A stretch of DNA of 64,000 bases, from assembly GCA_022539475.1 (NCBI GenBank), contig VCMS01000026.1:298530-362529 (forward strand), given 5' to 3'. Shown here one piece after another: positions 11,601-56,911 of the stretch. The notes beneath the pieces were generated by a model. The model did not search any database, was not told where the DNA came from, and saw only the letters and a program-made list of their open reading frames with translations. The first letter of the stretch is position 1; the number at the start of each line of letters is the position of its first letter. This stretch comes from Gracilaria domingensis. Its lineage: Eukaryota; Rhodophyta; Florideophyceae; Gracilariales; Gracilariaceae. A program made the position numbers and the translations under genes.

Positions 11601-12616
11601 CTGATCCATCGCCCGCGTTCAACAGACATAAGCACATCTTGATGCAGCGGCGTGGGCATCGCGCCACAATTCTCGACCGAATACCCCATCCACACAAACC
11701 CTCCCGGCTGTAAAATCCCATAGCCCAGCTCGTCCCGCACGGCCACGTCGGGGCAGACCTGCAAGTCGTAGCGCCACGGAAAGGCACCCAAACCATTGAC
11801 GTGGAACACAACTCTCCCGTCTAACCCTCTTACGCCATTCTCCCCATTTCGCCCAGGCGGCCCATTTCGGCCATGGGGCCCGTGCGGAGCGCCTGGCCGC
11901 GACCTGTGAATCGTCCTGGTCATCGGCCGGTTGTCTTGATAGTACGTTTGGTTCTCGACCCACGAGCAGCCCTTCCCACCACGCCCCCCTGGGCCACCTC
12001 TTCCTCCCGGTCCACCCGCACCGCCCGTGCCTGGCCGTCCGGCAACGGCGAGCGGTGGGGTCTTTACGAGCATGAACAAGTCCATGTCGGACACATCTGC
12101 GTCAACCTGAATATTCGCGCCGTTTCCACTGTTGCCTCCTCTCCCACCGTCCCCACCACAACCGCCGTCCTGACCTGGCCCGCCAGCCGTCGCAGAAGAA
12201 TATCTTGTTGCGTCACGCCCGGATGCGCCATACATGCCATTGCCTCCGGGACCGCCTGCGCCGCCAGTTCCGCCGTCCCCGCCCACTGCCTCGAGAAAGG
12301 CGGCGGCATGCGGGTCGGTGATGCGCAGTGTAGACTCGACGGGCGCCTGGTGAGCGATGGAGTGCTTTGCGATGATGACGGCTTCCATGTGTAATTGCAA
12401 GGAGAGGTTGATAGGGGCGGCATCGGCGCCATGCTGACCAGGGGCGCCGTGCATCCCTGACCTGCCAGCGCAGCCGGCCTTTCCTGACTTGCCTGATGCA
12501 CCATGGCACCCAGAGGAAACCAGGCGTACGTGCTGGCCTGGCGTGGCGGGTGTGGTGACTGTTGGGACGGTTACGGCTTGGATTGGGAAGAGTGGGAGGG
12601 GCAAGTTGATCGGCAT
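8633..12616 (-). CDS. Collagen-like Gly-rich protein with PH domain
   Basis: A large single-exon protein of 1,327 residues. Seen, from the ATG at 12616: a short hydrophobic/Pro lead; blocks of collagen-like Gly-X-X repeats at about residues 40-265 (GAPGQHGADA, GGTGGAGGPGGNG, GGRGGPGGRGGKG, GRNGPPGRNGENG) with non-repetitive segments between; a long mixed region with beta-rich character to about 770; a pleckstrin-homology-like domain at about 775-893 (SLKGFLYKNKRKGNCRVRRVF, LLLYYR, then the closing helix Trp in AEWKAEI); and a helical C-terminus. There is no signal peptide, so it is probably cytoplasmic or peripheral at membranes through the PH domain. Similar collagen-like/PH proteins with a conserved domain of unknown function occur in protists. 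The frame is open for 28 residues upstream of the ATG, so an earlier exon cannot be ruled out. Confidence 0.75.
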   Translation of the reverse strand: MPINLPLPLFPIQAVTVPTVTTPATPGQHVRLVSSGCHGASGKSGKAGCAGRSGMHGAPGQHGADAAPINLSLQLHMEAVIIAKHSIAHQAPVESTLRITDPHAAAFLEAVGGDGGTGGAGGPGGNGMYGASGRDATRYSSATAGGPGQDGGCGGDGGRGGNSGNGANIQVDADVSDMDLFMLVKTPPLAVAGRPGTGGAGGPGGRGGPGGRGGKGCSWVENQTYYQDNRPMTRTIHRSRPGAPHGPHGRNGPPGRNGENGVRGLDGRVVFHVNGLGAFPWRYDLQVCPDVAVRDELGYGILQPGGFVWMGYSVENCGAMPTPLHQDVLMSVERGRWIRPCKDNEDEGGGGTSILPCAIEQQTNVRLPEPLRLLLTDITAPIVGDPLHINVDVQHRALVSRINQCMPLVSNQGSRIAVTFPLQVSHMFGNVCTVLGGEAFVAWKVLNVSEQSIGPYAPVPREARVRFSAVDPSQRDIVDDQGQTISTQMFEMGHIEQAMELIPSHFEVGACSPIDGTVEYLSPFPGEIIPVRNIDAGEEAGFICTVRLEGNRGKAAPTPHSQVCLTATLDLGHPRALSELQPIQTRPFQVQVAEPFVFHHGDTKVLLVVNNRTTETEIAQWKALMSVILNVPKETGIALWNVSLYGGFSFTYKVTVPKLPDKQSLGSLFSGDDSLVIFLNNSCTPNAVRTDTSETCPMQHLKRHEPLDACKIYGCSSYIPGRDSGVELRARMRVPVGAHKLCEFEDTDQLLSAAIPTLVPASLLSVGKDGNKRVDPNSSSAAWLESSLKGFLYKNKRKGNCRVRRVFALRKERGLLLYYRKMNSKHPSATFELAHCSLAAEEEEYVPDSETKKQRETLTVITPERELKLSSVTAKGACVGPSLAEWKAEISDGIATAKAMAAAAETEADFGDLNVEDQVRDSSQPINPDFDTRKPLGHDLYCGAKFLTRQMNVSEKMLQNKACQIAESLAGQYPEYPCLVVYKYVQKCDQERNAGIMFNKRNIGDIFVRLGLPLGHSNVVSHCDAGDEQSRNSFIHSGVLSRHNVYGTLKSLPISAKIHILQNVEQDDTLTLEGVVAPYSCLELLIDAILSDVADEQACFRFGSISTSSKLQHSLRPSKKRNEAESWARRMICLSAICEEGAIGIVKSGTKKFEAVFRLCTSLRFMVRSGVPITQRMLKVSRVGLIARAADHLLKKLETNFANAVGLEKADKLQNEDGLSIEKCVSKMMKSGLAEGDEMIMGDKLLSFLRGRYGFGVADASTEDKTVAPIVMQFEEFSAARERDGETNLPVISMKAGLFETDRERQEALSEFLSTWGPGNKVAMVSL

Positions 12617-13102
12617 TGCATCTGGGAAATGATCAGACGAGAAAGATAGTTCGCATCGGACGTCGAGAATACAAAGCCGTTCCGACTCAGCATGTGACAA
12701 AGTGTGTGACTATAGCGAAAGTATAATATGTATGCTCTGTGAAGCTGCGAAGTTGCACGTGCACTGAAGGTGCCAGCGATAATATGAAGGGCTTAACCCT
12801 TACCTGATACGTGTGGTCAAATCAGATTTGTAAGATTCTTACATGCCGGAAGTTATTCATTAGAGGCAGCCAATTGTTTCGATCGCTTCCTACCCACATT
12901 GTTGCCGCACGAGGAGGAGGCGCCCACACGGAAAGCACTCGATAAAATTAGTTAAAACTTTTCAATAGAAGAAACTGCAGAGTAGGAAATCCCTACTAGG
13001 GATGTAACCGGACGGGAAATATCTGCGGACATACAATTATTGTTTTCCTCTCTTTGCCCTTGACGTTAGGCCAGAACATCCACTGCGTGGATAGCTGTGT
13101 AA
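12617..13102. other. Upstream region of the collagen-like gene
   Basis: About 490 bp expected to contain the promoter of the preceding minus-strand gene. An AT-rich TATTATAC lies on the minus strand near 12725. No gene seen. Confidence 0.4.
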
Positions 13103-15757: not shown

Positions 15758-16584
15758 TCACTGGATCGGTTTGCTCTGCTCTGACCAAACCAACGAAGCT
15801 ATAGAGCGCACGATGCGTCTAAAATACTCTCCATTAGAATGCACTAAACCACGTTGGCTTCCGCTGCTCGCCCGCACTTCGTTCGCCACAAACAAACGAA
15901 TCAACTCGCGCATCTCGGATGTGCTTGATAACAGTGATCGACACTGAGACCCTTCCAGACGACCAAGACTACTAAAAAGCCGTTCAGCAGAGGCTGAGGA
16001 TGCTTGAGCACCCAGAAACGCGCGCGCCACCATATTAAAAGGAACTGGACTAAACAAACCATGACTTTCGTTTGTGTTCTTCCAAAACGAAAGTGCCTCA
16101 TTTGGTTCTCTTCGCCCATTGCTCTTGAGTTTTTCTCGCATTTCTTGATGTAGAAGACGAAGCAAAGTCTTCAACGAAGCAGCAGGAACGACCAAAGACG
16201 CATCCAAATACAAAACCTCGCGTATTAAACAATCGTACAACAGCTCAAAGTAACAATCGCGTTCCTCTTGATTGTCTCCTAAAATTTCCAACTCTCACTC
16301 ATTGACATCCAATAAGAATGCCATATGAAATAAAAGAAAGCGACGACCTGCAACATGTGTAACATCTTCTCCAGTGATACCAAAACCCAATTCCTCTCCA
16401 ATAAGCGTCCATGTTGCACCGGAATTTGCGACAGGCTTCCAAGGTGCCCCTAAGCGGCGGTTCAGCGAACTGCACAGCCTCCGGCACAAATCCCGAGTAA
16501 CTGGCTTTATCAAGCGAATCTCACGGGCATGATTCCTGACTACATCAGAACCAGCTATGCTAACTATAGTAGCTCTCGCTGTGA
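15758..16584 (-). pseudogene. hAT transposase C-terminal remnant
   Basis: About 275 codons in one frame with a single TGA at 16295-16297. The C-terminal part carries the hAT dimerisation domain: EALSFWKNTNESHG, PFNMVARAFLGAQASSASAE, RLFSSLGRL, then the SLLSSTSEMRELIRLFV helix. The 5' portion is missing because the LTR at 16585 cuts in, and it does not continue beyond the far LTR at 38363. The catalytic DDE part is therefore absent. Confidence 0.8.
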
Positions 16585-17545
16585 TGTAGAGCAAAACCCC
16601 AGCGATGGGATCGTCTCTCAAGGCGTTTGAGTCCTTGCTCTCTAGACGAGGTAAACTCAGTGGTGAGCCCTCCGAACACGGATAGTGCGGGTGTAAGACC
16701 GCCCGTGGTACGGGATATACCTACGGAGGTTGAGAAGTGAACGGGCCTGATCCAGGAATCCGGCGAAAAGTGACGGAATGGTCGAGGAGGAAGGTACCGT
16801 AGAGCGGTGTAAGCCCTAGGCAAAAAGGGGGAAAAAGAGAGGAATCCCGCGGCGGGACGTGCGGCAAGCAGCAACAGACCCGGCGCCGGGAGATGGCGGT
16901 GTGTATTAAGCCCACGCGGCGTAACTCTACACAGAGACGGCAACGCTACCAATTGTGGTGAAAGCAGTACAACTGCACAAATAAGAAACAAGAACAGTCC
17001 GAAGACACGGAATAAAACAGCCCGAGGGCAAGGCCACAATGGTCAGTATTGCCTGAATGATCCCGAGGGATGAAGCTGAGTCGTACCGTACGCGGTGTTT
17101 CTCCGGAAGGAGTTGTACACTTCGCGATGGCGAAACAGTTCAGAGCCGAACTCGGTTACCCTTTACTGAGGGGCGGAGGTGGCCGCGAGGTCACCTCCTT
17201 ATATCGTAACCGATTACTTAGTTAAACTAAATTAAATAAATAAAGCGCACGCCTGTGCAGGTCCACACACGTGGAAGGTGTGCAACCCGCGGCAGCGACC
17301 AGTAAACTATTCGACTATCATAACACAACATGTTTGAACACACCCAACCCTACACACGCGTACACGCGACCAATATTCATCTGCGCCACGTCATGGCCGA
17401 CCCCTCAGGGTGCCATACCTCAATACTGCCAAAAAGCATCCCATCTGTTGGCCAATATTCATACCTTCCGAGTACCCGGAACCATCCTTACCAGGGGTTT
17501 ATGAAAACAATCCCCGTGTATCGGGCGAGCACGTTCTGCTCTACA
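16585..17545 (-). repeat. 3' LTR of the outer chromovirus
   Basis: A 961-bp copy starting TGTAGAGCAAAAC and ending GCTCTACA on the plus strand, so the LTR ends are themselves short inverted repeats. It matches 37384-38363 along its whole length. A purine run (minus strand AAGGAGGGGGATA) abuts it on the internal side, as a polypurine tract should. Open frames inside it recur in the other LTR and are not genes. Confidence 0.9.
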
Positions 17546-17606
17546 TATCCCCCTCCTTAGCGCAGGAAACATCCGGTTTGCAAGCGGAGACTCATCAGCG
17601 AGCGAG

Positions 17607-17613
17607 TATATAA
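17607..17613 (+). promoter_or_regulatory. TATA box for the antisense gene (outer element)
   Basis: TATATAA lies 62 bp from the inner edge of the LTR and reads toward the antisense gene. The nested element has the same box at the same distance from its LTR. The ATG at 17626 sits too close to it to be the likely start; the next in-frame ATG is at 17743. Confidence 0.65.
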
Positions 17614-17742
17614 GCGCGGTCCACCATGGACATATCCGAGATTCCGGTTCCTCGTCACAACGAGACACACGCGCAAGCGCACTCAACTTCTCTGCACTCA
17701 GACGATTCAGTACTTGAAGTTTCCTCCGCGATCGACGATTCG

Positions 17743-19439
17743 ATGAACCCTCACCAGGGCGACGAGCAGCCTTCCCAAGCCGGGGTTCCGAACGTTTCGG
17801 GTCCCGCAACTCCTGCGACAGGGTATCTCGGCGGTTTCGCCTCCGCTCCTCTGCCTCAGAGTCAACATTACACCTCTACACCGAATCCGGTCGACGTCGC
17901 GGCGTGGAATTCCACTCAGGCGGTACCCTTGCTGGCGACTCCAGCTGGCTGGATAGCGCGTGAATCGCTCCTTGTTCAAGATCCGACTACCGGAGGAAGC
18001 TGGGCCTATTCCAGAGCGCCCTGGTTTCACCTGACAGCGGTTCGCAACAGTGCGTTGATGTATTCATACACCGAGAACGGTATGCTGCCTGGCGGCCTGC
18101 ACCGAGATATGGTGGATTCCTAGGATTGGAGACACCGCGTGGCGGTTGCACCTCACGTGTTGTCACGGAAACGGCGAGGCCGTGGATACGAAACGCTGGA
18201 TGAAGCGCGCGCGGCTATGGCGCGATTGGCATACTTTCGGAAGGATCGAGCCTCGTTCCCCGAGAGGATCCCCGAGTCATACGGGTTCGACCTTTCCCGG
18301 TTCCGAACTTACGGAGAGATCAAGTATGGCGCGAACCTCGCGGACTTCCAAGCGGCGTAAAACTTCCCGGAGTCGATGCCGACGGAAATTCTCCTGTTCA
18401 ACAGGCCTATCCTTCGAGCGGGGTTCCGATATCTACATCGCCCTTCGGGAGAGGGAAGCTTCTTCGACCGATTGCGAAACGAACGCAAGTGGCGATCGCG
18501 GTTCGGGTATCTGATTGCACACCAGAACATGGAGGTTGAACGTTTGCGTCCGGACGCACTAGCGGCTCGATTCGCTCCACTCCATTGTGGTGGGCTCACT
18601 ATGAGGTACCACGCGGGTGTTTCCCGGAATTGCCTCCGTGCATCTCCTATTTGGGGTCGCGCATGATTGCGAATTCGCACTCGGAGTGTTGGATGCTCTT
18701 CATCGCCGAATGGGCCGCTCGCGTTGCCGCGTTTATGCTATGGGAAGCATATGACCAGAACCGTGTTTGGTATTTGCCTCCGAGGTTACGGAATGTGATT
18801 AGATCACTGGACTTATACATCGCGCTCGGTTCGGACGACAACGTCAGCGAGGCCATCAGCCTTATCGATCTCATCGATTCCATTGATTGGAGTACCGTTC
18901 CGGCGGAAAACGTCCCCAGGGGCACTCGTTCGCACTACGACTGTTGGCCAGGGCGAAGACATCCGGTTGCCGGTGACTTCGTGTATTACGATCCCAGGGA
19001 GGGAGCTACCCTCCCGAAGGAGCGGGCTCTCGTCCTACGTGGACTTCATCCAGTGGTTCCGACCGATCACCCTATTGGGTTCAGGTTTTCCGACAACTAT
19101 TACTCTGTAGCGGAGGAGGACGATCCAATGATGGATGACACTGTGGAAGACCCGGCAACGGAAGGCCCGTCGGCGGCTTCCGCAGGAGTTCCGGTTGTCG
19201 GAGGGGCGGCTGCGCCAGTTGCTCCTATCGGTTGGGGCGTGGGCCCTTCGCAGGGAAATATTGACCCTCGCGTGATAGCGATGCGCAACCAACTCCTCGG
19301 ACTTGGGTTGCCGGTTCCACCGGATATGTACGACCTCGGCCAGCTGTTGGCATTAGGCGCGCAGGCTTTCGCGAGTCAGCCTCCCCAAGCGGGGCCGTCC
19401 AACCCTGGAGGTGCCGGTCCTTCGACCGGATGGCAGTGA
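17743..19439 (+). pseudogene. Antisense accessory gene of the outer element
   Basis: An extra gene read opposite to gag-pol, from the LTR side inward. The predicted product is about 565 residues and I recognise no domain. Seen: a Pro/Ser-rich N-terminus, then blocks shared with the nested element's gene, including RFRTYGEIKYG (RYRTFGEVGYG), RPILRAGFRYLHRP (RPILRAEFRFLRRP), ERKWRSRFG, MEVERL, VPRGCFPELPPCISYLGS (VPRGCYVELPPCLTYIGS), a Trp/Ala helix ending EAYDQNRVW, and IDSIDWSTVPA. The C-terminus is Pro/Gly-rich. Damage in this copy: TAG at 18121, TAA at 18358 and a frame change near 18590. The TAG stands where the nested copy has a Trp codon. Confidence 0.8.
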
Positions 19440-19828: not shown

Positions 19829-22800
19829 TCACCCTACTTGGGCCTTATCCAAGTCTGGAGGCAGCGCTAACCGCTTACGCCGGTAGTAGGCGAGAACCTT
19901 CGATCGAGGTAGATGTTCGATCGGCTCGAAAGTATCCTCCTCAGGGGAGTATCCGTACCAACGGACTTGGTATTCAGTCTCCCCATCCGGGTTCAGGACG
20001 TGACTCACGATGCGTTCGATAACGAATTCCTGTGAGAGCATTCCCGTTCGCGGGCCTCCATGACTTATGGGCCACTCCTGCTGACACAATATCACCTAGA
20101 GAGGTTGTGCAATTGCGCTGGCGTCCCTCAGGTGAGGCTTTCCAAATGTTGGAGACGTGCTTGCTTCCGCGTTCCTCGCCAGATCCCGCTGCGGCGGCCG
20201 TACTGTAACTCGCGTCCTACGCGTCCTGTCCTCGAGCTAGAGGGATATTTGCAAAGCTCTCGAACAGACGAGTACAACGGTATCACGTTATTCGATGATA
20301 GTCGAGAGACCGACAAACGGTAGTACTTCCGATCGACGACTTCCCGGCCTTCACGGGGATAACCGTTTCGGTGACGGAGGTATGTACAACACTCCCTGGG
20401 CAGAGCGGCGGTTCACCCGGTCCACGGGGCATGTGCCATGAGCTCTGATTGGCTCCGCGCAACAGATTGGCGACCACGACAACCGTGTGCGTGCCGTGCT
20501 CGGCCATCCGTTCGCGAAAGGTCGCCAACCGCTCGTTAGGGCATTCCACGCTGTAACGTGCCACCGCGTGGCACGCGCCTGGTTCTGTCAGGGCCCGTGT
20601 CACGGAGATTGCACGCGTGCAGCGGCGATGGAGCGCCAGGGCTCCATTCCACACCCAAGGTGGTGCGCACTGTAGAGTGACGGCTTCCAAGAAAGCGTTT
20701 AAAATCCCACAAGGGAATCCACAATGAATGGTCACATTTTGACACAACTCGTTCACGAGATCTCCCAGTTCAGAGTCGCAGCGCTATTCTTCCGCGTGTT
20801 GCGGCTGGTCCGTATCAGCGGAAACGGTTTTCACAGTTTGACTGTCCTTTTCAACGGGGTTACGCGACTTCGAGCGGTTAGCGATCCCAGGCTCGGCAGC
20901 TGCTTCTGCGGCGACGTTCCGCCTCTCGCGGGGAGTACGGGTATCTTCCGTGATATCGTCGGACGATACGGCGAAGTTTCCGCGATTGGGGCGCGTCGAG
21001 GCGGCCGTGCCACTAGATTCTCCTACGGGAGCGACTGGATTGTCAGTGTGGGTCACATTTCCCGCGGTTTGGGAACCGGGCGACACCGGAGCGTCAGTGC
21101 AAGTTGCAGCAACTGCAGTATCCTCACCCTCCTTAGGTGGCGCCACGGGCTCCATAAGGAGATGGGGTGGGGGGGTGACTCTTCTAAATATTCTTGCAGA
21201 GTCGTTGGGATTCGTCCAAGTAGTAGGAAGTTCAATTCTGTGGTCAGAAGTACCTACTGTAGGTAGATCTCTTAATCCTCGATCCGGGTGCGGAGAATCG
21301 CCGGACGCGATGGCGTAGCATCCGTTGACGTAACTTCTTCCTGTAGAGGATCCCCTGATGAGGTATTGGTTGTAGATTGTCCGGAAGGCGGAGTAGGTGC
21401 CAGTACGACGCGATCACGCGATACACGCTCGTGTTGCTCATCAATGTCGATCACGACGGTATCTGGAGTAACAGAAATAACGTGATACGGTCCGTCGGCG
21501 ATCGGAGACAGCTTACGTCGTCGTTCCTTCTCAGGATTATAATACTCCTTTCGTAGGAAGACGTAATCATTAGCTTTCACCATTGATGTTTTGCCGCGTA
21601 ACCGGCTGTCGAAATTTCGCTTGTACGCGAGTTGAGCCTTCTCCATGGCCTTCCTGGCTACCGGTACCATCTTCTTCAACCAATTTTTTCAGGTGTCCCT
21701 GTACAAACCCGTCGACGGGAAAGACGATAGCGTCGCTTGAGCTTCAATTGCCACAGGTGGCGGAATCCTTGAGAGGACCATTTCAAACGGCGACAGCGAC
21801 GTAACCCGATGTACCTGGGTGTTATATGCGTAAGTTATCTCATCAGTGTACAGGTCCCAATCCTTTGGGTGATCCGCAACGTAGGATCTCAATGCGTTTA
21901 GCATCGTACGGTTAAACCGTTCTACCTGCTCATTACACTGGGGATGATAGGTTGTTGTAAACAAATTCTTGATATCCAAGATACGGCATACGTCCATAAA
22001 GAACTTTGACGCAAACTGCGAGCCATTATCTGAAAGCAGACTAACGGGTGGCCCGTAAGTGAAGACCCAATGCGTCACAAATGCTTGTGCAACTGCTGCT
22101 GCAGTGATCCGCTTCAACGGGACCGTTCGCATTAACTTCGAAAACTTGTCCGTGATAACCAGGAGATACCTGTGACCGCGTGCGTTTCGAATTAATTCGC
22201 CCAGAATGTCGATAGCGACGAACTCCAAAGCAGCCCGGGCTGGGAACAGCGTCATCGACTTAGAATTTCGTCGAAGTTTGACGTTGTTCTTGGCGCATTC
22301 CGTGCATGAACGGCGTACTGCGTAGCAGTTGAATGCCATAGCTGGCCAATAAAAGTCTCTTCGGAGAGTTAGATACAACTTCCTGCCACCACCCAGCCGG
22401 AACTATCTGTCATTAGCTTTTCCATCCAATTCCTATATGTGCCAATTTTTTCTTGGTACTCCAATATCTTTTCAATGGCAATTACATGTCATATTTTTCG
22501 GCTTGCCATCTCTCAATAGAAATTCAACATGTTACCGTTTTCTTCAATTAACAGAGTTCCTAAAGGATTCTTCTTGAAACGTGAATGAAATCTTAATGAC
22601 AGAAGCACTCTAGTATTTCCGCCTGGGCCAGGGTGTCCCCCAATCTTTGCATAGTGGGATATATGAAGCACCCTCCATTGTAGGGAGTGTGGAACCACAA
22701 TTTGAGGGCGTGGCCCAACAATCCTAACAAGGAATCCCTGATCGTTGATTAGAAAGGGTATCTTGAATCCCCCGTTGAGCCGGGCCCTTATCTGAGTACA

Positions 22801-24693: not shown

Positions 24694-25553
24694 TGTAGAG
24701 CAAAACACCATTTTGTGGGGATGCATCGAGGTGCTTTTCATAGTTTGCTGATCCGTTACCGGCTTCGACACCTCAGGTTATGAGAGGCTACTGTGGTACT
24801 GGCCCTATTTTGGGGTTTGCCTAGGAAGGGTAGTATTTCTGCACACGTGTGCTACGTTGGACCAATAGCCGGTGCGCCGTGGCAAGCCTGCAACGGTTGC
24901 ACACCTGTAGTGTATTGGCCGGCATTGCCGGGTAGTTAGATATTTCAATTGATATTTTCAAGTGCCGTACATAAGTGGCGGCACTTGCGGCCACTGTACG
25001 GGAAGTAAACCTCAACGAGGCCTTTGGCTTTGATCTTCTTGCCGCTTGCGCACGGTCACAAGTCCCATCCTGGGAAATACCGCCGCAATTCCGGGCTGAT
25101 CAACCAACCTCCATCTCTGAGGAGTACTAATCCGTCGTCACGGCACCTTTACTATCTATTCTATTGTTTTTACTTCCGTCTTACGGCTCTTCGATACTCT
25201 GCCCTGTCATACAGGTTTCGCCCATTATTCTCGGGACTTATTCCCGTTTTCTCGAGTCAGTGCTCCGCAGTGCGGCTCGCTTGCTAATCTTTTGTCGTCC
25301 CATACCGTTGGGCTGGATACCTCCACTCGCTGTGGCTCGCCGGAACCATCCGGATACCTACGCCGATTCTACCCGCTCCACCTCCGACTGCACGCCCAGA
25401 TCGGGGCCACCCGGATTTACACCCGGCTCGTGTTGACCCTATCGGAGGGTTCTTTCACTGCGCCTACCCCTGTAGGGAGCAGGGTTTGAACACCCCTGTC
25501 GGTGCTCTTCCGCAACGCGGCGGTTGTTTTCCCGTCACCGGGTTTGCACCACA
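24694..25553 (+). repeat. 5' LTR of the nested element
   Basis: Begins TGTAGAGCAAAAC and ends TTTGCACCACA; equal in length to the copy at 33325. The first 13 bases are shared with the outer family's LTR, though the bodies differ. An 87-codon frame inside is present in both LTRs and is not treated as a gene. Confidence 0.93.
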
Positions 25554-28796: not shown

Positions 28797-30959
28797 GTGG
28801 ATAAGAAGACAGCTTTAGAAGAGCTTGAGTCTCTGGACCTTGATCACGTCCCAGAGACTCACTGCGATAAACTGCGGCATATGCTCGAAGAGTTCACGCC
28901 CATGTGGGATGGATCCCTTGGGAAGATTGGCATCACCGGACATCGGATTTATTTGCTACCGAATACTCGGCCCATCTCACAGCACTCTTACAGGGCAGGA
29001 CCGACAGCCCGGCAAGAGGAGAAGGCTCAAGTTGAGAAGATGCTCCGCGCTGGAGTTATTGAGCCGGCTCAATCACCATGGGCATCGCCGGTAGTGCTCG
29101 CGCCCAAATCTGATGGGTCTTGGCGATTTTGCATCGACTACCGCAAGTTAAACGCGGCTACGGTCAAGGATGTGTATCCTATCCCACGAATGGATGAATG
29201 CATCGATTTGTTGGGCGACGCGAAAGTATTCACAACCTCAGACGCGAATTGGGGCTATTGGCAAGTTCTCGTGAGGGCTGAAGATCGTGACAAGACAGCT
29301 TTCGTCTGTCATGAAGGATTGCACCGATTCAATCGGATGCCCTTTGGGTTAACGAACGCGCCAGCCACATTTCAACGAGCCGTGGATATTTTGCTAGCCC
29401 GCTTCAAGTGGAAGACCAGCCTGGTTTACCTGGATGACATCATTGTCTACTCCAGCAACCTGGATGAGCACTTGACCCACGTACGGGATGTGATGCGAGT
29501 CCTACGCGATGCAGACATTACGCTTAAGCTCAGGAAGTGTGAGTTCTTTACCGAAACCGTCAGGTATCTCGGCCACGTCATCCGTCCTGGACGGCTATCT
29601 ATCGACGAAGTTCCGGTGAAATCCCTCAAAGAGGCTAGGCATCCACGGACGCAGACTGAACTCCGATCTTTTCTCGGCTTGTGCAACGTTTATCTCCGCT
29701 TCATTCCGAACTTTGCGGATATTGCATCACCTCTGAACGAGCTTCTTCGCAAGGGACACCCAGTACAACTGGAAGCATTCGACGACCACAAGGCGGCGGC
29801 TTTTTCGTCTCTGATCAACGCCGTGACATCGCCACCGGTTTTATCCCTACCTAGGGCTGGTTTGCCGTATGCCATCTACATACGTGATTCGCTGCCGGAA
29901 AGCCGGAAGAGTCGCACAGGTTCGCTGAAGCCTTGGGAGAAGGACGCCGCTCCGTTGACGATCGATACCGGAAGACCGGAAGGGAAGGACGCGCCGTTAC
30001 CACGGAAGCCTGAGTTGGAAGGCACCACTACGGTGATTTGCAAAGCCCGAAGACCGGAAGGAGAGAAGTTAGTGAAGAAAGACCGTGCTGTTACGGCAGA
30101 CCTGACTTCGGGAGATTTTGGTGCGGCACCAAGCACCGAAGCCGTCGAAAATACGGAATTAACCGCCAGTGTGGCAAGCAGTCAAACCACAGCAAGTGGG
30201 CTGCACTCAAGCACCGCCGACGAGCGCACGACGCGCCAACTGTCGAGCTCCGTGGGAGATCCGCCTCCAACCGAGGATTACAGTGCACAAGCCGGGCACG
30301 TGCCAGCAACAGACCTGGCGCCGCCTAAAACCGGTTCAGAAAATTCCGAGTTTGAATCGGCTCTTGACAGCCATGCAAAGGCGCAGGTGTCGCAAACCGC
30401 AGTGCGCAACGAACCGTCGCCACGGCATGTGCCAGAACACCACTCGAAGGCACGCCGCGTTGCGGACCGTTCACCGTCGCAACGGGAGATTATGCCGGAA
30501 TGCCGGAAGCTCGCCATTCGGGAAGAACGAAGTCCGTTTACAGCCCAGCAGCATGAGAAGAAGAACCAGGAAAATGGAAGCCTGACAGTCAGGAAAACAC
30601 CATGGTCAACGTCGCCTTTGCCTGCTGTGCAGGATATGTTGCCGTCAGGACGGAAGCCACCTACATTTGACGATGCCCACGACTTGAACAGGAGCAATGA
30701 TGCCTCGAAAGAGGATTCCTCGACCAAGCCGCATCCTGAGCAGAAGGTCCTCGATGAGGAATATGTTATCGACCGTCTGGTAAGTCACGGCTACGCCCCT
30801 GACGGGGAACTACTGTATCGAGTCCGTTGGTACGGCTATGCCTCTTCAGAGGATACGCACGAGCCTATCGAGCATTTGCCTCGCTCGAAGGTTTTGCAGC
30901 ACCACCGTCGCACACGGACACCGATACCGGCTACGCTGGACAAGGCCCAAGTGGGTTGA
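28797..30959 (+). CDS. Reverse transcriptase fused to polyprotein tail and chromodomain
   Basis: An uninterrupted 720-codon frame. Residues 1-360 are reverse transcriptase (WASPVVLAPKSDGSWRFCID, MPFGLTNAPATFQRAVDILL, intact catalytic VYLDDIIVYS). At about residue 361 (29877-29885) LPYAI runs straight into RDSLPESRKSRTG, a sequence that in the fragment at 54086-56484 lies far downstream of integrase. So RNase H and integrase were deleted with the frame kept. A disordered charged tail follows, then a C-terminal chromodomain (YRVRWYGYASSEDTHEPIEHL). Such a copy could only move with help from a full element. Its upstream protease frame is broken, so this is probably no longer translated as part of Gag-Pol. 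Confidence 0.82.
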   Translation: MDKKTALEELESLDLDHVPETHCDKLRHMLEEFTPMWDGSLGKIGITGHRIYLLPNTRPISQHSYRAGPTARQEEKAQVEKMLRAGVIEPAQSPWASPVVLAPKSDGSWRFCIDYRKLNAATVKDVYPIPRMDECIDLLGDAKVFTTSDANWGYWQVLVRAEDRDKTAFVCHEGLHRFNRMPFGLTNAPATFQRAVDILLARFKWKTSLVYLDDIIVYSSNLDEHLTHVRDVMRVLRDADITLKLRKCEFFTETVRYLGHVIRPGRLSIDEVPVKSLKEARHPRTQTELRSFLGLCNVYLRFIPNFADIASPLNELLRKGHPVQLEAFDDHKAAAFSSLINAVTSPPVLSLPRAGLPYAIYIRDSLPESRKSRTGSLKPWEKDAAPLTIDTGRPEGKDAPLPRKPELEGTTTVICKARRPEGEKLVKKDRAVTADLTSGDFGAAPSTEAVENTELTASVASSQTTASGLHSSTADERTTRQLSSSVGDPPPTEDYSAQAGHVPATDLAPPKTGSENSEFESALDSHAKAQVSQTAVRNEPSPRHVPEHHSKARRVADRSPSQREIMPECRKLAIREERSPFTAQQHEKKNQENGSLTVRKTPWSTSPLPAVQDMLPSGRKPPTFDDAHDLNRSNDASKEDSSTKPHPEQKVLDEEYVIDRLVSHGYAPDGELLYRVRWYGYASSEDTHEPIEHLPRSKVLQHHRRTRTPIPATLDKAQVG

Positions 30960-31657
30960 CCACCCACAACTCAATTGAGCACAGCCGTCTCAGACGGAAT
31001 ATGCCGCCTCATGCGGATAATATTGCATTACGCAAGGATGTGCCGTTTCAAGCGGATGCGACTAAGTTAAGTTGAGATCAGTAAGCCGCCTTAGGCGGAA
31101 CAAGCCGCTCAATGCGGACAGCTTCAAGCTGGGAACACACGCCGCAAAATGCGGAAGCCACTTACAGTGGAGAAGAAGATGAAGAAGAACGAAGCCTAAG
31201 AAGAAGGAGAAGAAGCCAGGACACTGGAAGGAAGACTAAGAAGTTTTATCGCTACAGCCGCTTGTGCGGAAAAGTTACCCCCTCTTTTGGGCCATTCGCA
31301 ACAGCCTCAAACGAGGTATTGCCCACTGAGAAGGGGGAGAACAAGACGAAAAGTTTGAGCCAAGCCAGCAAGGCTGGAGAAGTTTACCTCTAATTATTGA
31401 GTCGCCCCTCATCATCCGGGTCTATCGTGGACTACCGTAGCCCGTCAGGGATCGCTAGCCGGGGAATTACGCGCCGGACGGCCCAGCACCTGGGGTGCTC
31501 CCACTACCGGGAGCCCCGGAGAAGCGCTGTGCCGCTATCGCTTGCAACTCCGACTCGTCGGTCACCGTATCGGGAACGGCCACTCCCACGCCTCGGAGGA
31601 AGTCGCGAATGACCGCCGCTCGCGGAGTGAGAGAGGAACTGCCGCCCCCGGCGGATG
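30960..31657. other. Convergent spacer with CCGC...GCGG micro-hairpins
   Basis: It lies between the chromodomain stop and the stop of the minus-strand accessory gene. At least six short stem-loops of the form GCCGC-N(4-6)-GCGGA are spaced along it, for example GCCGCCTCATGCGGA, GCCGCCTTAGGCGGA, GCCGCTCAATGCGGA and GCCGCTTGTGCGGA. They may end transcription from both sides. Confidence 0.6.
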
Positions 31658-33163
31658 CTACGTCCTGAGCCCACGGCCGGTCGGATCGGGAGCCGCTACA
31701 GCGGGTGGGACAACAACCACGACTTCGTCGTCGTCTCCCATAGCTCCGGGCTCCGGTACAACCTCCACGCGCACTGGTCTCCCATCATCCATGGAGCTTC
31801 CTCCCTCAGTAGGGTCATCACCGTCGTCATCGACGTAAACGAACCCACGCGGGTGCTCTTCTGGGATATGGCGCTCCTCTCGGCGGCGACCAGCCACCTC
31901 AGCGGGGCCAATTATCTCCCAAATCCATGGGTCAAAGTATACGAAGTCGCCGGCAATGACGTTCCGTCCGGGAGAACGGTCCGACTGCCGACGAACCCCG
32001 TCGGAAACCTGACTAGCAGGCACCTCATTCCAGTCAATCTGGTCAATGACGTCCACCAACGCGGTGGCTTCGCGCGCATTGCGGACCGAGCCGAGCACTT
32101 CGGAGAGATCCAAAGCTCGGATCGCTTGCCGGATGAGCTCCGGGATGAACCAAACTCGGTACGAATCATATGCCTCGATGAGGAGGAAAGCCGCAACGCC
32201 GACGGTCCATTCTGTTGCCAGGATGCTCCACACGCCGCGAGGCGGATCGTTCATGAAGTACGAGCCTATGTAAGTTAGGCAGGGTGGTAGCTCTACGTAA
32301 CACCCTCGTGGGACTTTGACCGCAGGCCAGAATGACGGCAGCGGCAGGTATCGCCCAGCGTGGGAGTGACGCGCGATGCGCTCCACCTCCATACACTGGT
32401 ACGGCACCAGTACCCCGAAGCGGGAACGCCATTTCCTCTCGAATCAGAGGCCTTCATGAAATTTAGACCGTCCCGGACGGCGAAGGAACCGGAATTCGGC
32501 GCGAAGAATGGGCCGCGCCCACAGGATCAACTCCTGCTGCGGCTGAACGCTGTCCGAATATCGGTCAATTTTTTCCACCGCGTTGGCTAGATAGTCGCCG
32601 TAGCCGACCTCGCCGAAAGTTCGGTAACGTGCCACGTTGTACTGGTACTGTGCCGGCACCGGATATTCGTTCGGAGCCCGGAAGTGTCGCGCGTACCCAA
32701 TCCGGGACATCTCATTGCGAGCGAACTGTCTCGTCTCGTTTCGACCTACAAACAGGCAACTCGGTATAACCGCAACGCGGGCGATCCAGTCCCATGAACG
32801 GGTAACGTCAGCAAGAAGCCCACCAGGGAGTTGACCATCGACAGCGTACGAGTCAACGAGCTCGGTATCCCGAACGGCCTCGGCGTCAAGCCAGGGAGCC
32901 TGGGCGAAAAGGAAACTGTGCCGGTGCGGATCCCGGATGCGTAACGCGCCTGCGGTAGGCTACCCACCCAGCGTAGCTGGCATCTTGGCGTTGAACCAAT
33001 CCCGCACGGGCGCGGGACCAGCCTGAGCTGGAGCGTGATCCTGTCCAGAAGAGCCCGGTTGAGAAGCAGCCGCTGACTGCGGAAGAGGTACTGACCGGAA
33101 TGGCGGGTTGGACACTTGCATACGTGCCTTCGAGGACGGAGGGCCGTTCGGTGCGTCCGACAT
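31658..33163 (-). pseudogene. Antisense accessory gene of the nested element
   Basis: A 502-codon gene opposite to gag-pol, homologous to the outer element's gene at 17743-19439. It is in one frame from the ATG at 33163 to the stop at 31658, broken only by TAG at 32960-32962 and TGA at 32444-32446. The TGA corresponds to an Arg before FERKWRSRFG. Seen: a Pro/Ser-rich N-terminus (MSDAPNGPPSSK), then LRIRDPHRHS, GQLPGGLLADV, RYRTFGEVGYGDYL, RPILRAEFRFLRRP, VPRGCYVELPPCLTYIGS, EAYDSYRVWFIP, IDQIDWNEVPA, AGDFVYFDP and an acidic C-terminus. No known domain recognised; no signal peptide or zinc-binding pattern. Confidence 0.82.
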
Positions 33164-33257: not shown

Positions 33258-33264
33258 TTATATA
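33258..33264 (-). promoter_or_regulatory. TATA box for the antisense gene (nested element)
   Basis: TATATAA on the minus strand, 61 bp from the start of the 3' LTR and 95 bp before the ATG at 33163. The position relative to the LTR is the same as in the outer element. Confidence 0.65.
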
Positions 33265-33324: not shown

Positions 33325-34184
33325 TGTAGAGCAAAACGCCCTTTTGTGGGGATGCACAGAGGTGCTTTTCATAGTTTGCAGATCCGTTACCGGCTTCGAC
33401 ACCTCAGGTTATGAGAGGCTACTGTGGTACTGGCCCTATTTTGGGGTTTGCCTAGGAAGGGTAGTATTTCTACACACGTGTGCTAAGTTGGCCCAATAGC
33501 CGGTGCGCCGTGGCAAGCCTGCAACGGTTGCACACCTGTAGTGTATTGGCCGGCATTGCCGGGTAGTTAGATATTTCAATTGATATTTTCAAGTGCCGTA
33601 CATAAGTGGCGGCACTTGCCGCCCCTGTACAGGAAGTAAACCTCAACGAGGCCTTTGGCTCTGATCTTCTTGCCGCTTGCGCACGGTCACAAGTCCCATC
33701 CTGGGAAATACCGCCGCAATTCCGGGCTGATCAACCAACCTCCATCTCTGAGGAGTACTAATCCGTCGTCACGGCACCTTTACTATCTATTCTATTGTTT
33801 TTACTTCCGTCTTACGGCTCTTCGATACTCTGCCCTGTCATACAGGTTTCGCCCATTATTCTCGGGACTTCTTCCCGTTTTCTCGAGTCAGTGCTCCGCA
33901 GTGCGGCTCGCTTGCTAATCTTTTGTCGTCCCATACCGTTGGGCTGGATACCTCCACTCGCTGTGGCTCGCCGGAACCATCCGGATACCTACGCCGATTC
34001 TACCCCCTCCACCTCCGACTGCAAGCCCAGATCGGGGCCACCCGGATTTACACCCGGCTCGTGCTGGCCCTATCGGAGGGTTCTGTCACTGCACCTACCC
34101 CTGTAGGGAGCAGGCTTTGAACACCCCTGTCGGTGCTCTTCCGCTACGCGGCTGTTGTTTTCCCGTCACCGGGTTTGCACCACA
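33325..34184 (+). repeat. 3' LTR of the nested element
   Basis: An 860-bp near-identical partner of 24694-25553. The sequence after its last base (CCGCTGAGTGG) resumes the outer element's protease-RT linker. Confidence 0.93.
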
Positions 34185-35081
34185 CCGCTGAGTGGTTTTG
34201 CCAAAGTTGGAAACCAGTACCTGGAAAGGTTGATCGGGTTCGATAGAAACAACTCCATTAGCTAAAGCGAGCTGTCGCTGATCGTATGACGATGAAGACG
34301 GTTGAACTAGTCGAATTCCATGTTGTTTAGAGACGCACTGCACCCACACCTGGGATTCCGGCGGGATTGAAACGGATTTCGCTTTGCGAAGCTTTGTTGA
34401 TTTCGGATCCACGTTTGGAACCTCCTGAGCCACAGGTAATAGGACGCGCTTCCGGATTGCGCGCCTCAACGGCTTCCGAACAATCGGAATGGTCTTACCG
34501 TCTTCCATTTCCACGGTTTTCGCCCTCGGGCGTATCGTTTCGACAAAGCGGTCGCAAAAATCACAACCGAGTAGAACCGGTGCAGCGAGTGAATCGCAGA
34601 TAACAAATTCAAGTTTCACCACGTATGTTCCAAGTCTCACTGTGAGAGTTAAGTAACCAACCGTGCGCAACGGGTAATTGTTCGCGTCAGCGATATCCAA
34701 GCCTGGATCATAGCGAACGAATTCCCGAAGTGCCAGGGGCACTAACGAAGAGTTAATGAGATTGGGCGCAGCGCCCGTGTCTAACACAGACAGTTGACGA
34801 ACCATAAACTGGTGTGATAAGCCGAGGTCGGCGTAAACCTTATAATTCCTCTTGGCCATCACAAGGACTGTATCCGGGTTACGGAAATTTCGGGACCGTA
34901 CCCACGGACGACGGAGAACCGTTAAAAGCTCTGAGTCCACGTCAGATTGAGCCATCTTCCTCGTAAGGATCTTCCTCGCAAGGAAAGTGAGCTGGGAGCG
35001 AAGCGGCGGCGCCTCGGGCGTCTCCGACTTCGGCTCAGGAGACGCCCTTCCCGCAGGGGGAACTCCCAAGTTTAGTTTTTC
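34185..35081 (-). pseudogene. Protease region of the outer element
   Basis: A retropepsin-type protease in the -1 frame relative to the gag stop at 35072-35074. Seen: KMAQSDVDSELL, VMAKRNYKVYADLGLSH, active site LDTGAAPNL, VLLGCDFCDRFVETIRP and the linker SIPPESQVWVQCV. The frame is intact up to the nested insertion, which cuts it after VSNFGKTTQR. The GAAAAAC shift site at 35075-35081 joins it to gag. Confidence 0.82.
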
Positions 35082-37167
35082 TGGGCGGGGTTGGCCGCCG
35101 ACGGCAAACTCTGCTCAGAGTAGGAAACCGAATTCCCGGGTTCGGGGTTGGTCACAGATACCTGTTCAGCCTGGTTCCGAGGTTGCTCAGTTCGAACGTT
35201 CTGTCCTGTAACAGGATTGCCAAACTTGGCCCTTTGCTCTTCATAATTCTTACTCGGAACATGAGCACGGTGAGCTGGTGACAAGGACTCATACCACCCG
35301 ATAATTTTCGGTAACTTCCGGGCGGGCAACATGCACACAGGTGCAATATGACCGGGTCGGTGACAAATATGACAGATGGTCGTCACCGACTTATCGAAAG
35401 ATCGATTACCGTCTGGCCGTCGTTGCGGTTGCGCATTCACCCATTCTGGGCGTGCGAAACGGCTGCCGTTGGTCGCGTAAGCGAGTGGAGCGGCCTGTAC
35501 TCGTGTTCCTCCCATATAGAGTGCGGAGTCACCTTCCGAGGTCGGAGTCGACAATGACGGAATGTCAGAAGACCCGTACGAATCGGGAGAACTTCCAACG
35601 AAGTGGACGTTATCCAGATCCGGGTTTACGGAGTTTCCACGTTCCAAGGAAAGAGATGGAGATGACTCGTTGACGAGCAACGACCTTGAGTGACGGGGTT
35701 TCGGCGGGCGCCGAGCACGGAGGACTTCGCCTTCAGCCTGAGCGTACTGGACCAATTCCAAATACGTAATCCTACGTTTCTCTTCGCGATATCGCGCCAC
35801 CAAAGCCTTGATAGAACGTTCCAACCCATCCACGAACATCGTGCATCTCTCCTGAGCAGAGTACACATTTCCACAGCGAAGAAACGCTTTATTCAGCCGA
35901 GTTGAGTAAACCGTTTCGGTTTCTTCAGTCTTCTGTTTAGTATCTCGCAGAGCGAGCGTCGCGTTGTGAATCGCGCTTCCTGTTGCATACGACCTCAGGA
36001 GATATTGGGCCGCTTCCGGCAAACAACTGAGACCTCCCTCAGATGCACGGGACGACCCTCGGACCGAGCTAAACTGATCTTCAGCCATCCCTGACAGAAA
36101 ATAGGGTAAAGCGAGAAACGCTTGCGCCTCGTTCACACAGAGAATGTCGGCTTCCTGCTCAAAGCGGGCCAGGAAGGCCAGTACCAGAATTGGATCTTCG
36201 CCATCGAATTTCTTCGTAAAGACGATATTCAGTCTTCTGATGTGGTTCTTCACCTTATCGGTGCTTCGCGAGGTGCGACTTGACGATGAATCGTCCAGTC
36301 GGTAATAACGATACGATAACAGCTTCCTGTAGAGGAGATTCGTTGGTTTGAACTCCTTGAGTCCAAGATGACGTCTACCTTTCTCGCGAGAGCGAATCAC
36401 TCCTTGAGTGGCATGTGTCGCCTTCGACTTCGTTCCGCGGGATCTACTCCCATACCGTTCTCGGTCTTCCTCACTGTCCGAAGAACTGGATGACGTAGAT
36501 TTCGCAGAGCGAACACTAGAATTGGAACTAGACGAATCCGAGTGGTAACGCAGTTCCCTTTTGGATGGTCGATTTCCGTGATACGGAGACTGGCGTGCCG
36601 AGCGCTTAGAGGCTTCTTCCTTAGCATTCTTCGCATCAGATGCGTTATCCATCCGGATGATCTCTTCGAGAGTAGACAACCGAGTGGTTAGGCGATCGAT
36701 TTCAGCTCGATGCTCCTGAATAGAGGAATGGTAAGCTTGAACAAAAGTGGCTGGTGCACCCAGACTTTCCAAAATAGAATTCACGTCTTGACGTAAGACG
36801 CGAATGTCATTGGTCGGATCTCCGATTTCAGCTTTTCAAGCTTTCGTCTGAGATACTGCAGATCCTCGAACAACGAGTTTTGCGCGAGCTGACTGACACG
36901 CAGTTGAGCCTCGAGGTACGAGTATCCAGGGGTTTCAACCACATCGTCTGGTCTCTCCGTGGCCGGAGTACCCGTAACGGGCGGAGCTCCTGCAGTAGAA
37001 GCGGCCATCGGACCCGACGTGACTGACGAAGCTCTCCGAGGTTCCGGGACCTGTTCATTGTCAGGCGACCTTGCAGGTACGGAGGCGCGAGAACGCGGAG
37101 GCCTAGGCGGAGGCACACCAGCATCTCTGGCCACACTGTTTCGAGAGTTCGTCGCAGGTGGCGCCAT
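35072..37167 (-). pseudogene. gag of the outer element
   Basis: Starts at the ATG at 37167 (MAPPATNSRNS) with a Pro/Arg-rich N-terminus and a coiled-coil stretch. A frame change near 36830, found by comparison with the nested gag, separates this from the rest (36784-35072). The rest contains a second coiled-coil part, a Ser-rich tract, LGLKEFKPTNLLYRKLLSYR, the capsid core (VYSTRLNKAFLRCGNVYSA, CTMFVDGLERS) and a zinc knuckle CHICHRPGHIAPVC. Ends AANPAQKN at the shift site. Confidence 0.85.
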
Positions 37168-37383: not shown

Positions 37384-38363
37384 TGTAGAGCAAAACCCCA
37401 GCGATGGGATCGTCTCTCTAGGCGTTCGAGTCCTTGCCCTCTAGACGAGGTGAACTCAGTGGTGAGCCCTCCGAACACGGATAGTGTGGGTGTAAGACCG
37501 CCCATGGTACGGGGTATACCTACGAGGTTGAGGGGTGAACGGGTCTGATCCAGGAATCCGGCGAGAAGTAACGGAATGGCCGGAAGGAAAGGTACCATAG
37601 AGCGGTGTAAGCCCGAGGCAAAAGGGGGAAAAAGAAGGAAAACCAAAGGAGGAAAAGAGAGGAATCCCGCGGCGGGACGTGCGGCAAGCGGCAACAGACC
37701 CGGCCCCGGGAGACGAAGATTTGTATTAGGCCCACGCGGCACAACTCTATACAGAGACGGAAACGCTACCAATTGTGGTGAAAGCAGTACAACTGCACAG
37801 TGAAAGAAACAGAAAGTCCGAAGACACGGAATAAATAAGCCCAAGGGCAAGGCCGCAATGGTCAGTATTGCCGGAGTGATCCCGAGGGATGAATCCTGTC
37901 CGTACCGTACGCGGTGACCCTCCTGAGAGAGTTGTGCACTTCGCGCAGGCGAACTTGGTCCAGAGCCGGACTCGGTTACCCTTTACTAAAGGAGGAGGTG
38001 ACCGGGAGGTCACCTCTTATATTGTAACCGATAAATTAGTGAAACTAAATTAAATAATCTAATGCACACCTAAGCAGGTCCATACACGTGGTGCACGTGA
38101 CAACCCGCGGCAGCGGCCAGTAAAATATCCGACAATCATAACAAGACATGTGTGAACACACCCATTCCTACACACGCGTACACGCGACCAACACTCATCT
38201 GCGCCACGTCATGGCTGACCCTTCAGGGTGCCATACCTCAATACTACCAAAACGTATCCCATCCGTGGGCCAATACTCATACCTTCCGAGTACCCGGAAT
38301 CATCCTTACCAGGGGTTTATGAAAACCATCCCCGTGTACCGGGCGAGCACGTTTTGCTCTACA
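37384..38363 (-). repeat. 5' LTR of the outer chromovirus
   Basis: A 980-bp partner of 16585-17545, with a small extra purine-rich insertion near 37640. Ends TGTAGAGCAAAAC and GTTTTGCTCTACA. Confidence 0.9.
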
Positions 38364-56484: not shown

Positions 56485-56911
56485 CGTCTGTCTCTTGCAG
56501 ATGCTAGTTTTTGGCGAGGGTCGTCCAGAAATTGGCAAGGGTCGTCCAGTAAATTTTTTGAAAAAATATCGAGATCAATTATTTCAAAATTTGGAGATAA
56601 TTGCTTGGGTCGTCCAGAATCGCTGTGCAGTAAATACTGGTGGGTTTTCCACTCATGCTAGTTCTTTAGTCGAGGGCTACCTGAACCGTATTTCGCGAAG
56701 TCTAGGTTCAGTTTCCATTAAGGTGCACATTAAACGATACCTTCTGCGGAATGATACCCTGCAACGCATGGAATACTAGTACTAGTACAGATGATGCCCA
56801 TTATGAAATCATACCGTCTTATTCGTATCTATGCTTCTATCGACCGCTTTTGCTAACCACTACTTCGCTATATTACATGTACCATTTCCCCATGATGGAG
56901 CGGATGTAGGC

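What the first reader, a model, noticed from the sequence alone, without database searches (positions are those of the whole stretch)
17607..19439. Conserved antisense gene inside a chromovirus (outer copy)
Seen: a gene of about 565 codons on the strand opposite to gag-pol, between chromodomain and 3' LTR, with its own TATATAA 62 bp from the LTR. The nested, clearly different element has a homologue in the same place and orientation with similarity across the whole length. Known: a few plant Ty3/gypsy groups carry extra antisense reading frames, usually of unknown function. Inference: this lineage kept an accessory protein under selection, perhaps for regulation of, or targeting by, the element. 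I recognise no domain.
Basis: partly seen in the sequence, partly recalled or inferred. Interest (0 to 1): 0.88.

Follow-up and report, generated by a model that had tools for sequence, protein, structure and literature searches.

The report
Antisense gene in algal retrotransposons
A group of jumping genes in a red alga carries an extra, backwards-facing gene for an unknown protein that natural selection has kept intact, much as some plant retrotransposons carry backwards genes whose job is also unknown.

Summary
The gene lies opposite to gag-pol between chromodomain and 3' LTR, with TATATAA 62 bp from the LTR end; this copy is broken by stops and a frameshift. The host is a red alga, not a plant. 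Its genome holds at least 40 places of this family and 151 matches to the nested homologue; 30 of 85 fetched loci have a long uninterrupted frame. Natural copies show purifying selection: dN/dS 0.09-0.24 in the nested family, 0.23-0.26 in a third, with changes mostly at third codon positions; the other five frames carry 8-28 stops in six tested pairs. The outer family is weaker, 0.47-0.76. Five families share the layout; a TATA-like box lies 61-63 bp from the LTR end in four. A relative exists in Gracilariopsis chorda. AlphaFold gives a mostly helical core of about 350 residues without a credible match. It works, at best guess, like the antisense accessory ORFs of plant Grande/Retand elements, but none of 8 relatives matches their Pfam family PF04195. 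Transcription and a regulatory or nuclear role are inference.

The parts
17743..19439 (+). Antisense accessory gene of the outer element from the inner ATG (565 aa in uninterrupted relatives); broken here by stops and a frameshift
   Evidence: inner Met aligns with the start of P0002
17626..17742 (+). In-frame extension from the first ATG; coding status unresolved
   Evidence: two F1 pairs: Sd 1/Nd 13 and 0/5 in these 39 codons; against that, the matching part of the nested family aligns with G. chorda P0003 from residue 1
17607..17613 (+). TATATAA box, 62 bp from the LTR end
17546..17560 (-). Polypurine tract of the outer element beside its 3' LTR
   Evidence: sequence
16585..17545 (-). 3' LTR of the outer element
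37384..38363 (-). 5' LTR of the outer element
19871..20038 (-). Chromodomain of the outer element
   Evidence: tblastn
35072..36784 (-). Probable gag of the outer element
   Evidence: position and a CCHC-type knuckle seen in the translation (motif recalled); no Pfam match; 54% identical to the frame in the same place in the nested element
31467..33163 (-). Homologous antisense gene of the nested element from its inner ATG (first ATG at 33271-33269); broken here
33258..33264 (-). TATATAA box of the nested element, 61 bp from its LTR end
   Evidence: position in the family
24694..25553 (+). 5' LTR of the nested element
   Evidence: 97.4% identical to the other copy
33325..34184 (+). 3' LTR of the nested element
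30750..30923 (+). Chromodomain of the nested element

Best explanation
It is a true accessory gene of a lineage of chromodomain-bearing Ty3/gypsy retrotransposons of red algae. It is read on the strand opposite to gag-pol, most likely from its own promoter just inside the 3' LTR. It encodes a soluble protein of about 565-680 residues: a disordered N-terminus, a mostly helical globular core of about 350 residues, and a disordered, acidic C-terminal stretch with short helices near its end. Shown here: position, orientation, amplification, the same layout in five families, purifying selection on the protein in two families, and a predicted folded core. Inferred: that an antisense transcript is made, and that the protein acts in trans on its own element, most likely as a nuclear regulatory or pre-integration factor, as proposed for the antisense ORFs of plant elements.
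For: Selection: six F2 pairs give dN/dS 0.09-0.24 and three F3 pairs 0.23-0.26; for example Sd/Nd 53.5/34.5 (p 2e-13), 26/7 (p 1e-10) and 55.4/40.6 (p 2e-11), with codon-position counts such as 1,5,27. The other five frames hold 8-28 stops in each of six pairs. 30 of 85 loci (28 of 77 distinct places) have an uninterrupted frame of at least 540 codons, 27 distinct proteins. By hand count 64 of the 150 rows listed show an open frame of 587 codons or more and no stop in the match. In all 30 of those loci the chromodomain lies on the opposite strand beyond the gene's 3' end, as in the single loci of two more families. TATA-like box at +61, +62, +63 in three families and +63 in a fourth. Deep retention: F2 groups with the G. 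chorda protein (65% identical) and F1 with P0002 (57%), both 100/100, while F1, F2, F3 are 40-42% identical to each other. Helical core in two models.
Against: No RNA or protein data. F1 dN/dS is only 0.47-0.76 in ten pairs. Within F1 the TATA block is no better conserved than its flanks (0.905 against 0.92-0.98), and 19 of 40 copies keep TATATAAG exactly; 3 of 26 readable F2 copies lack the box and the one F4 copy has none there. In F2 the first ATG lies upstream of the box, and one uninterrupted F1 copy (L026) has lost the inner ATG, so the start is unsettled. No conserved nuclear signal or nucleic-acid-binding motif was found. Models are of moderate confidence (pTM 0.60, 0.58).
Confidence: 0.6

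Rival explanations
1. The protein is a structural or particle-associated factor working with Gag (packaging or assembly), expressed from the antisense strand.
For: Helical soluble core; low hydropathy in 10 of 11 proteins and Arg/Glu-rich invariant columns, 9 R and 6 E of 31; protein divergence between the families (40% identical) nearer to gag (54%) than to RT (71-79%).
Against: No credible fold match among solved or viral models; antisense expression makes co-assembly in fixed ratio with Gag awkward (inference).
Confidence: 0.15
2. The antisense RNA, not the protein, matters: it pairs with genomic RNA and tunes silencing, and the frame is a by-product.
For: Such a role is discussed for other elements (PMC7264820, main text read); TATA-like box at +61 to +63.
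Against: It does not explain dN/dS of 0.09-0.26 in F2 and F3 or uninterrupted frames in 30 of 85 loci.
Confidence: 0.07
3. A captured host gene or inserted second mobile element carried as a passenger without benefit to the retrotransposon.
For: Origin unknown; I could not see the genomic context of any relative outside this genome.
Against: Same place and orientation in five families; family splits older than the split from the G. chorda lineage unless elements moved between species; purifying selection. A captured origin remains possible.
Confidence: 0.05
4. The similarity reflects constraint on the gag-pol strand or chance, not a protein.
For: One frame of the gag-pol strand also shows a low ratio, 0.12-0.29 in the four F2 and F3 pairs.
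Against: That frame shares its third positions with the antisense gene and holds 13-25 stop codons in those pairs; the protein is conserved in other organisms.
Confidence: 0.01

Closest known systems
[quoted passage not shown]
   Same: Same position and orientation; long protein of unknown function in most copies; own upstream promoter reported for Grande (PMC7264820, main text read; PMC11963269, abstract start and passages)
   Different: Those are land-plant elements, and Retand is described as a non-chromovirus lineage (PMC11963269); the present elements carry a chromodomain and sit in a red alga. No PF04195 match in 8 of 8 relatives at E up to 10; Grande gene23 itself was not compared
Boty of Botrytis cinerea (antisense ORF between pol and 3' LTR)
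   Same: Layout, as stated in PMC7264820
   Different: Fungal; protein not compared here because I had no sequence
Retroviral antisense genes such as HTLV-1 HBZ
   Same: Antisense gene read from the 3' end of a gag-pol element; HBZ is nuclear (PMC11963269, passage)
   Different: HTLV's antisense promoter lies inside the 3' LTR (PMC7264820); here the TATA-like box is in the internal region. No protein comparison was made

Membership tests
Ty3/gypsy chromovirus (host element) | Reverse transcriptase plus chromodomain at the end of pol, LTRs, PPT | tested here: met
   RVT_1 8e-33 and Chromo 7e-7 in the nested pol; chromodomain hits in 75 of 86 sources; LTRs; PPT seen
Antisense additional ORF between pol and 3' LTR (aORF-3R) | Long frame opposite to gag-pol between pol and 3' LTR, present in many copies of a family | tested here: met
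Antisense additional ORF between pol and 3' LTR (aORF-3R) | Transcribed, from its own promoter | not testable with these tools
   only a TATA-like box at +61 to +63 in four of five families; no RNA data
TRP28 / Transposase_28 (PF04195) proteins of Retand-type elements | PF04195 match | tested here: not met
   no match in 8 of 8 relatives at E up to 10; remote homology below HMMER's reach is not excluded
Env-like proteins | Transmembrane segment, sense orientation | tested here: not met
   antisense; highest 19-residue hydropathy 0.90-1.54 in 10 of 11 proteins, 2.15 only in P0007 at residue 58, upstream of the conserved core

The most novel reading that the evidence does not exclude
An undescribed protein family with a fold not seen among solved structures, carried antisense by a whole lineage of red algal chromoviruses and needed for their spread: an independent invention of antisense accessory genes alongside those of land plants and fungi, with a promoter placed at a fixed distance from the LTR.
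Probability: 0.45. Interest if true: 0.7.

Novelty: new variant of a known kind. Interest (0 to 1): 0.57.

Why it matters
Antisense accessory genes of retrotransposons have been described mainly in land plants, and their function is an open question (PMC7264820). Here a protein without detectable relationship to the TRP28 family fills the same place in a lineage far from land plants, with clear selection on the protein, many young copies, and a compact predicted core that can be expressed and studied. It suggests that this gene position has been filled more than once, and it gives a tractable case for asking what such proteins do.

Full report
What is there. The window holds two nested chromoviruses. 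The outer one runs on the - strand between LTRs 37384-38363 and 16585-17545 (86% identical), the inner one on the + strand between LTRs 24694-25553 and 33325-34184 (97.4% identical). Each carries, between its chromodomain and its 3' LTR, a long reading frame on the opposite strand. In the outer copy it ends at 19439 and starts at 17626 or 17743; it is broken by stops and a frameshift. In the inner copy it runs from 33271 or 33163 down to 31467 and is broken too.

The host. The genome is 77.9 Mb in 680 contigs. A host FkbM methyltransferase gene in the window has its best named relatives in Agarophyton chilense (58%) and Gracilaria domingensis (55%), with Porphyra umbilicalis at 40%, and the one named relative of the antisense protein is from Gracilariopsis chorda. 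The host is therefore most likely a florideophyte red alga; the species is not settled.

Copies. A DNA search of the host genome scored 40 places for the outer family (F1), the window's own included: 38 cover nearly all of the query and two cover its first 1323 bases; apart from the window copy they are 92-96% identical. A protein search with the nested homologue gave 151 matches, 150 of them listed, 71-100% identical (F2 and relatives). Further searches showed proteins of about 670-680 residues (F3), frames of 660 codons (F4) and of 703 codons (F5). All counts are lower bounds, since only the best candidates are scored. Before the codon work I held 85 loci, which stand for 77 distinct places (six F1 places were fetched twice and one three times). 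Thirty of the 85 loci, 28 of the 77 places, have an uninterrupted frame of at least 540 codons that contains the RAEF motif, giving 27 distinct proteins; three of these (L024, L057, L084) end differently from their family. L052 has a 611-codon frame too but lacks that exact motif and was not counted. In one search, 64 of the 150 listed rows by hand count have an open frame of 587 codons or more and no stop within the match; these are the best-ranked rows, not a random sample.

Layout across families. A chromodomain was found by tblastn in 75 of 86 sources (85 loci and the window). Of the 11 misses, ten are F1 stretches cut short of the domain, and one (L062) was long enough and gave none. In all 30 loci with an uninterrupted gene the chromodomain hit is on the opposite strand beyond the 3' end of the gene (in the short F1 stretches only part of the domain is present). 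One locus each of F4 and F5 shows the same (the F4 chromodomain has an internal stop). The LTR end and PPT lie upstream of the gene in F1-F5.

Selection. On natural uninterrupted copies only, 12 copies were compared all against all. Within F2 six pairs give dN/dS 0.09-0.24, within F3 three pairs 0.23-0.26, within F1 ten pairs 0.47-0.76; F1 copies are older, so much of their change may have accrued after insertion. I then took six pairs for a six-frame test. The four F2 and F3 pairs give 0.20, 0.09, 0.14 and 0.24 with Fisher p from 9e-8 to 2e-13, and codon positions 1,2,3 carry 17,14,57; 1,5,27; 4,5,24 and 20,16,60 substitutions; the two F1 pairs give 0.49 (p 0.02) and 0.47 (p 1e-4). The other five frames hold 8-28 stops in each of the six pairs, so none is a coding alternative. 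One gag-pol-strand frame shows a low ratio too (0.12-0.29 in the F2 and F3 pairs, 0.50 and 0.62 in F1), because its third positions coincide with those of the antisense gene.

Age. F2 is 65% identical to the G. chorda protein and F1 57% to P0002 from an unnamed contig; each pair groups with support 100/100, while F1, F2 and F3 of one genome are 40-42% identical to one another. The families, with the gene, thus seem to have split before their hosts did, unless elements moved between species. Five of 11 inner branches of the tree are poorly supported.

Promoter. A TATA-like box lies at +62 from the LTR end in F1 (of 40 copies 19 keep TATATAAG, 10 have CATATAAG, the rest differ or lost it), at +61 in F2 (23 of 26 copies whose LTR end was recognised, out of 30) and at +63 in F3 (6 of 6 recognised, out of 7), and at +63 in the one F5 copy; the one F4 copy lacks it. 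In F2 the box falls within the codons after the first ATG, and in F1 it holds an in-frame stop, so its common position is better explained by a DNA role than by coding. Against this, within F1 the box is no more conserved than its flanks. If it works at the usual distance (recalled: about 30 bp), translation would start at the inner ATG, whose Met is followed by Asn/Pro-rich sequence in F1, F3, F4, F5 and P0002; in F1 the 39 codons before it show 1 synonymous to 13 non-synonymous and 0 to 5 changes in two pairs, while two F2 pairs have too few changes to tell. Yet F2 and the G. chorda protein align from residue 1, and L026 has lost the inner ATG. The start is unresolved.

The protein. Two AlphaFold models from the same eight relatives, with P0003 and P0002 as first row, agree in outline: disordered N-terminus, mostly helical core (about residues 90-440 of P0003, block means mostly 73-94 with dips to 52-68), a disordered stretch, and two short C-terminal helices. 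Overall confidence is moderate (mean pLDDT 63.6 and 61.1, pTM 0.60 and 0.58). The C-terminal part is acidic in the three families measured (pI 4.1). No library gave a credible match; the structure tools warn that this does not show the fold to be new. The 31 invariant columns are rich in Arg (9) and Glu (6), without Cys or His; basic clusters occur, such as RKRRGRG in F1, but are not conserved.

How it most likely works. Best reading: a trans-acting accessory protein made from an antisense transcript, acting in the nucleus on the element's own expression or integration. The gene, its selection and a predicted fold are shown; the rest is inference from plant and retroviral parallels. A role with Gag in particles is the main rival.

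What is in print. PMC7264820 (main text read in parts 1-2 of 3; the rest is references) reviews antisense additional ORFs in Grande, RIRE2, Retand, PvRetro13 and Boty. PMC11963269 (abstract start, passages) reports TRP28-bearing antisense ORFs in 97% of Retand clusters. None of 8 relatives of the present protein matches PF04195. Searches of the held library that could have shown a report of this gene (listings only; PMC12477816: passages) showed none. A 2025 red algal genome paper (Petroll et al., Bostrychia), seen only as a reference in PMC12477816, is not held, and most subscription papers are missing, so earlier mention cannot be excluded.

Noticed in passing
window 29881-30317 and 56048-56484: 437 bp at 97% identity shared between the nested element's spacer after RT and a third gypsy fragment (54091-56661), although another pol part of that fragment is only 68% identical to the outer element: looks like recombination between families.
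   Followed up: no
window 16585-17545 and 37384-38363: The outer LTRs begin TGTAGAGCAAAAC and end in its reverse complement (exact in the right copy, one mismatch in the left), longer than the usual TG..CA; no target-site duplication is visible (flanks TGTGA and AAACA).
   Followed up: partly
window 8633-12700 (-): A 1355-aa frame with a Gly-rich, collagen-like part and a DUF7932 match just above its cut-off, probably a host gene.
   Followed up: no
window 15758-16291 (-): Probable remnant of a hAT transposase (C-terminal dimerisation region, 20.4 bits against a cut-off of 21.4) next to the outer LTR.
   Followed up: no
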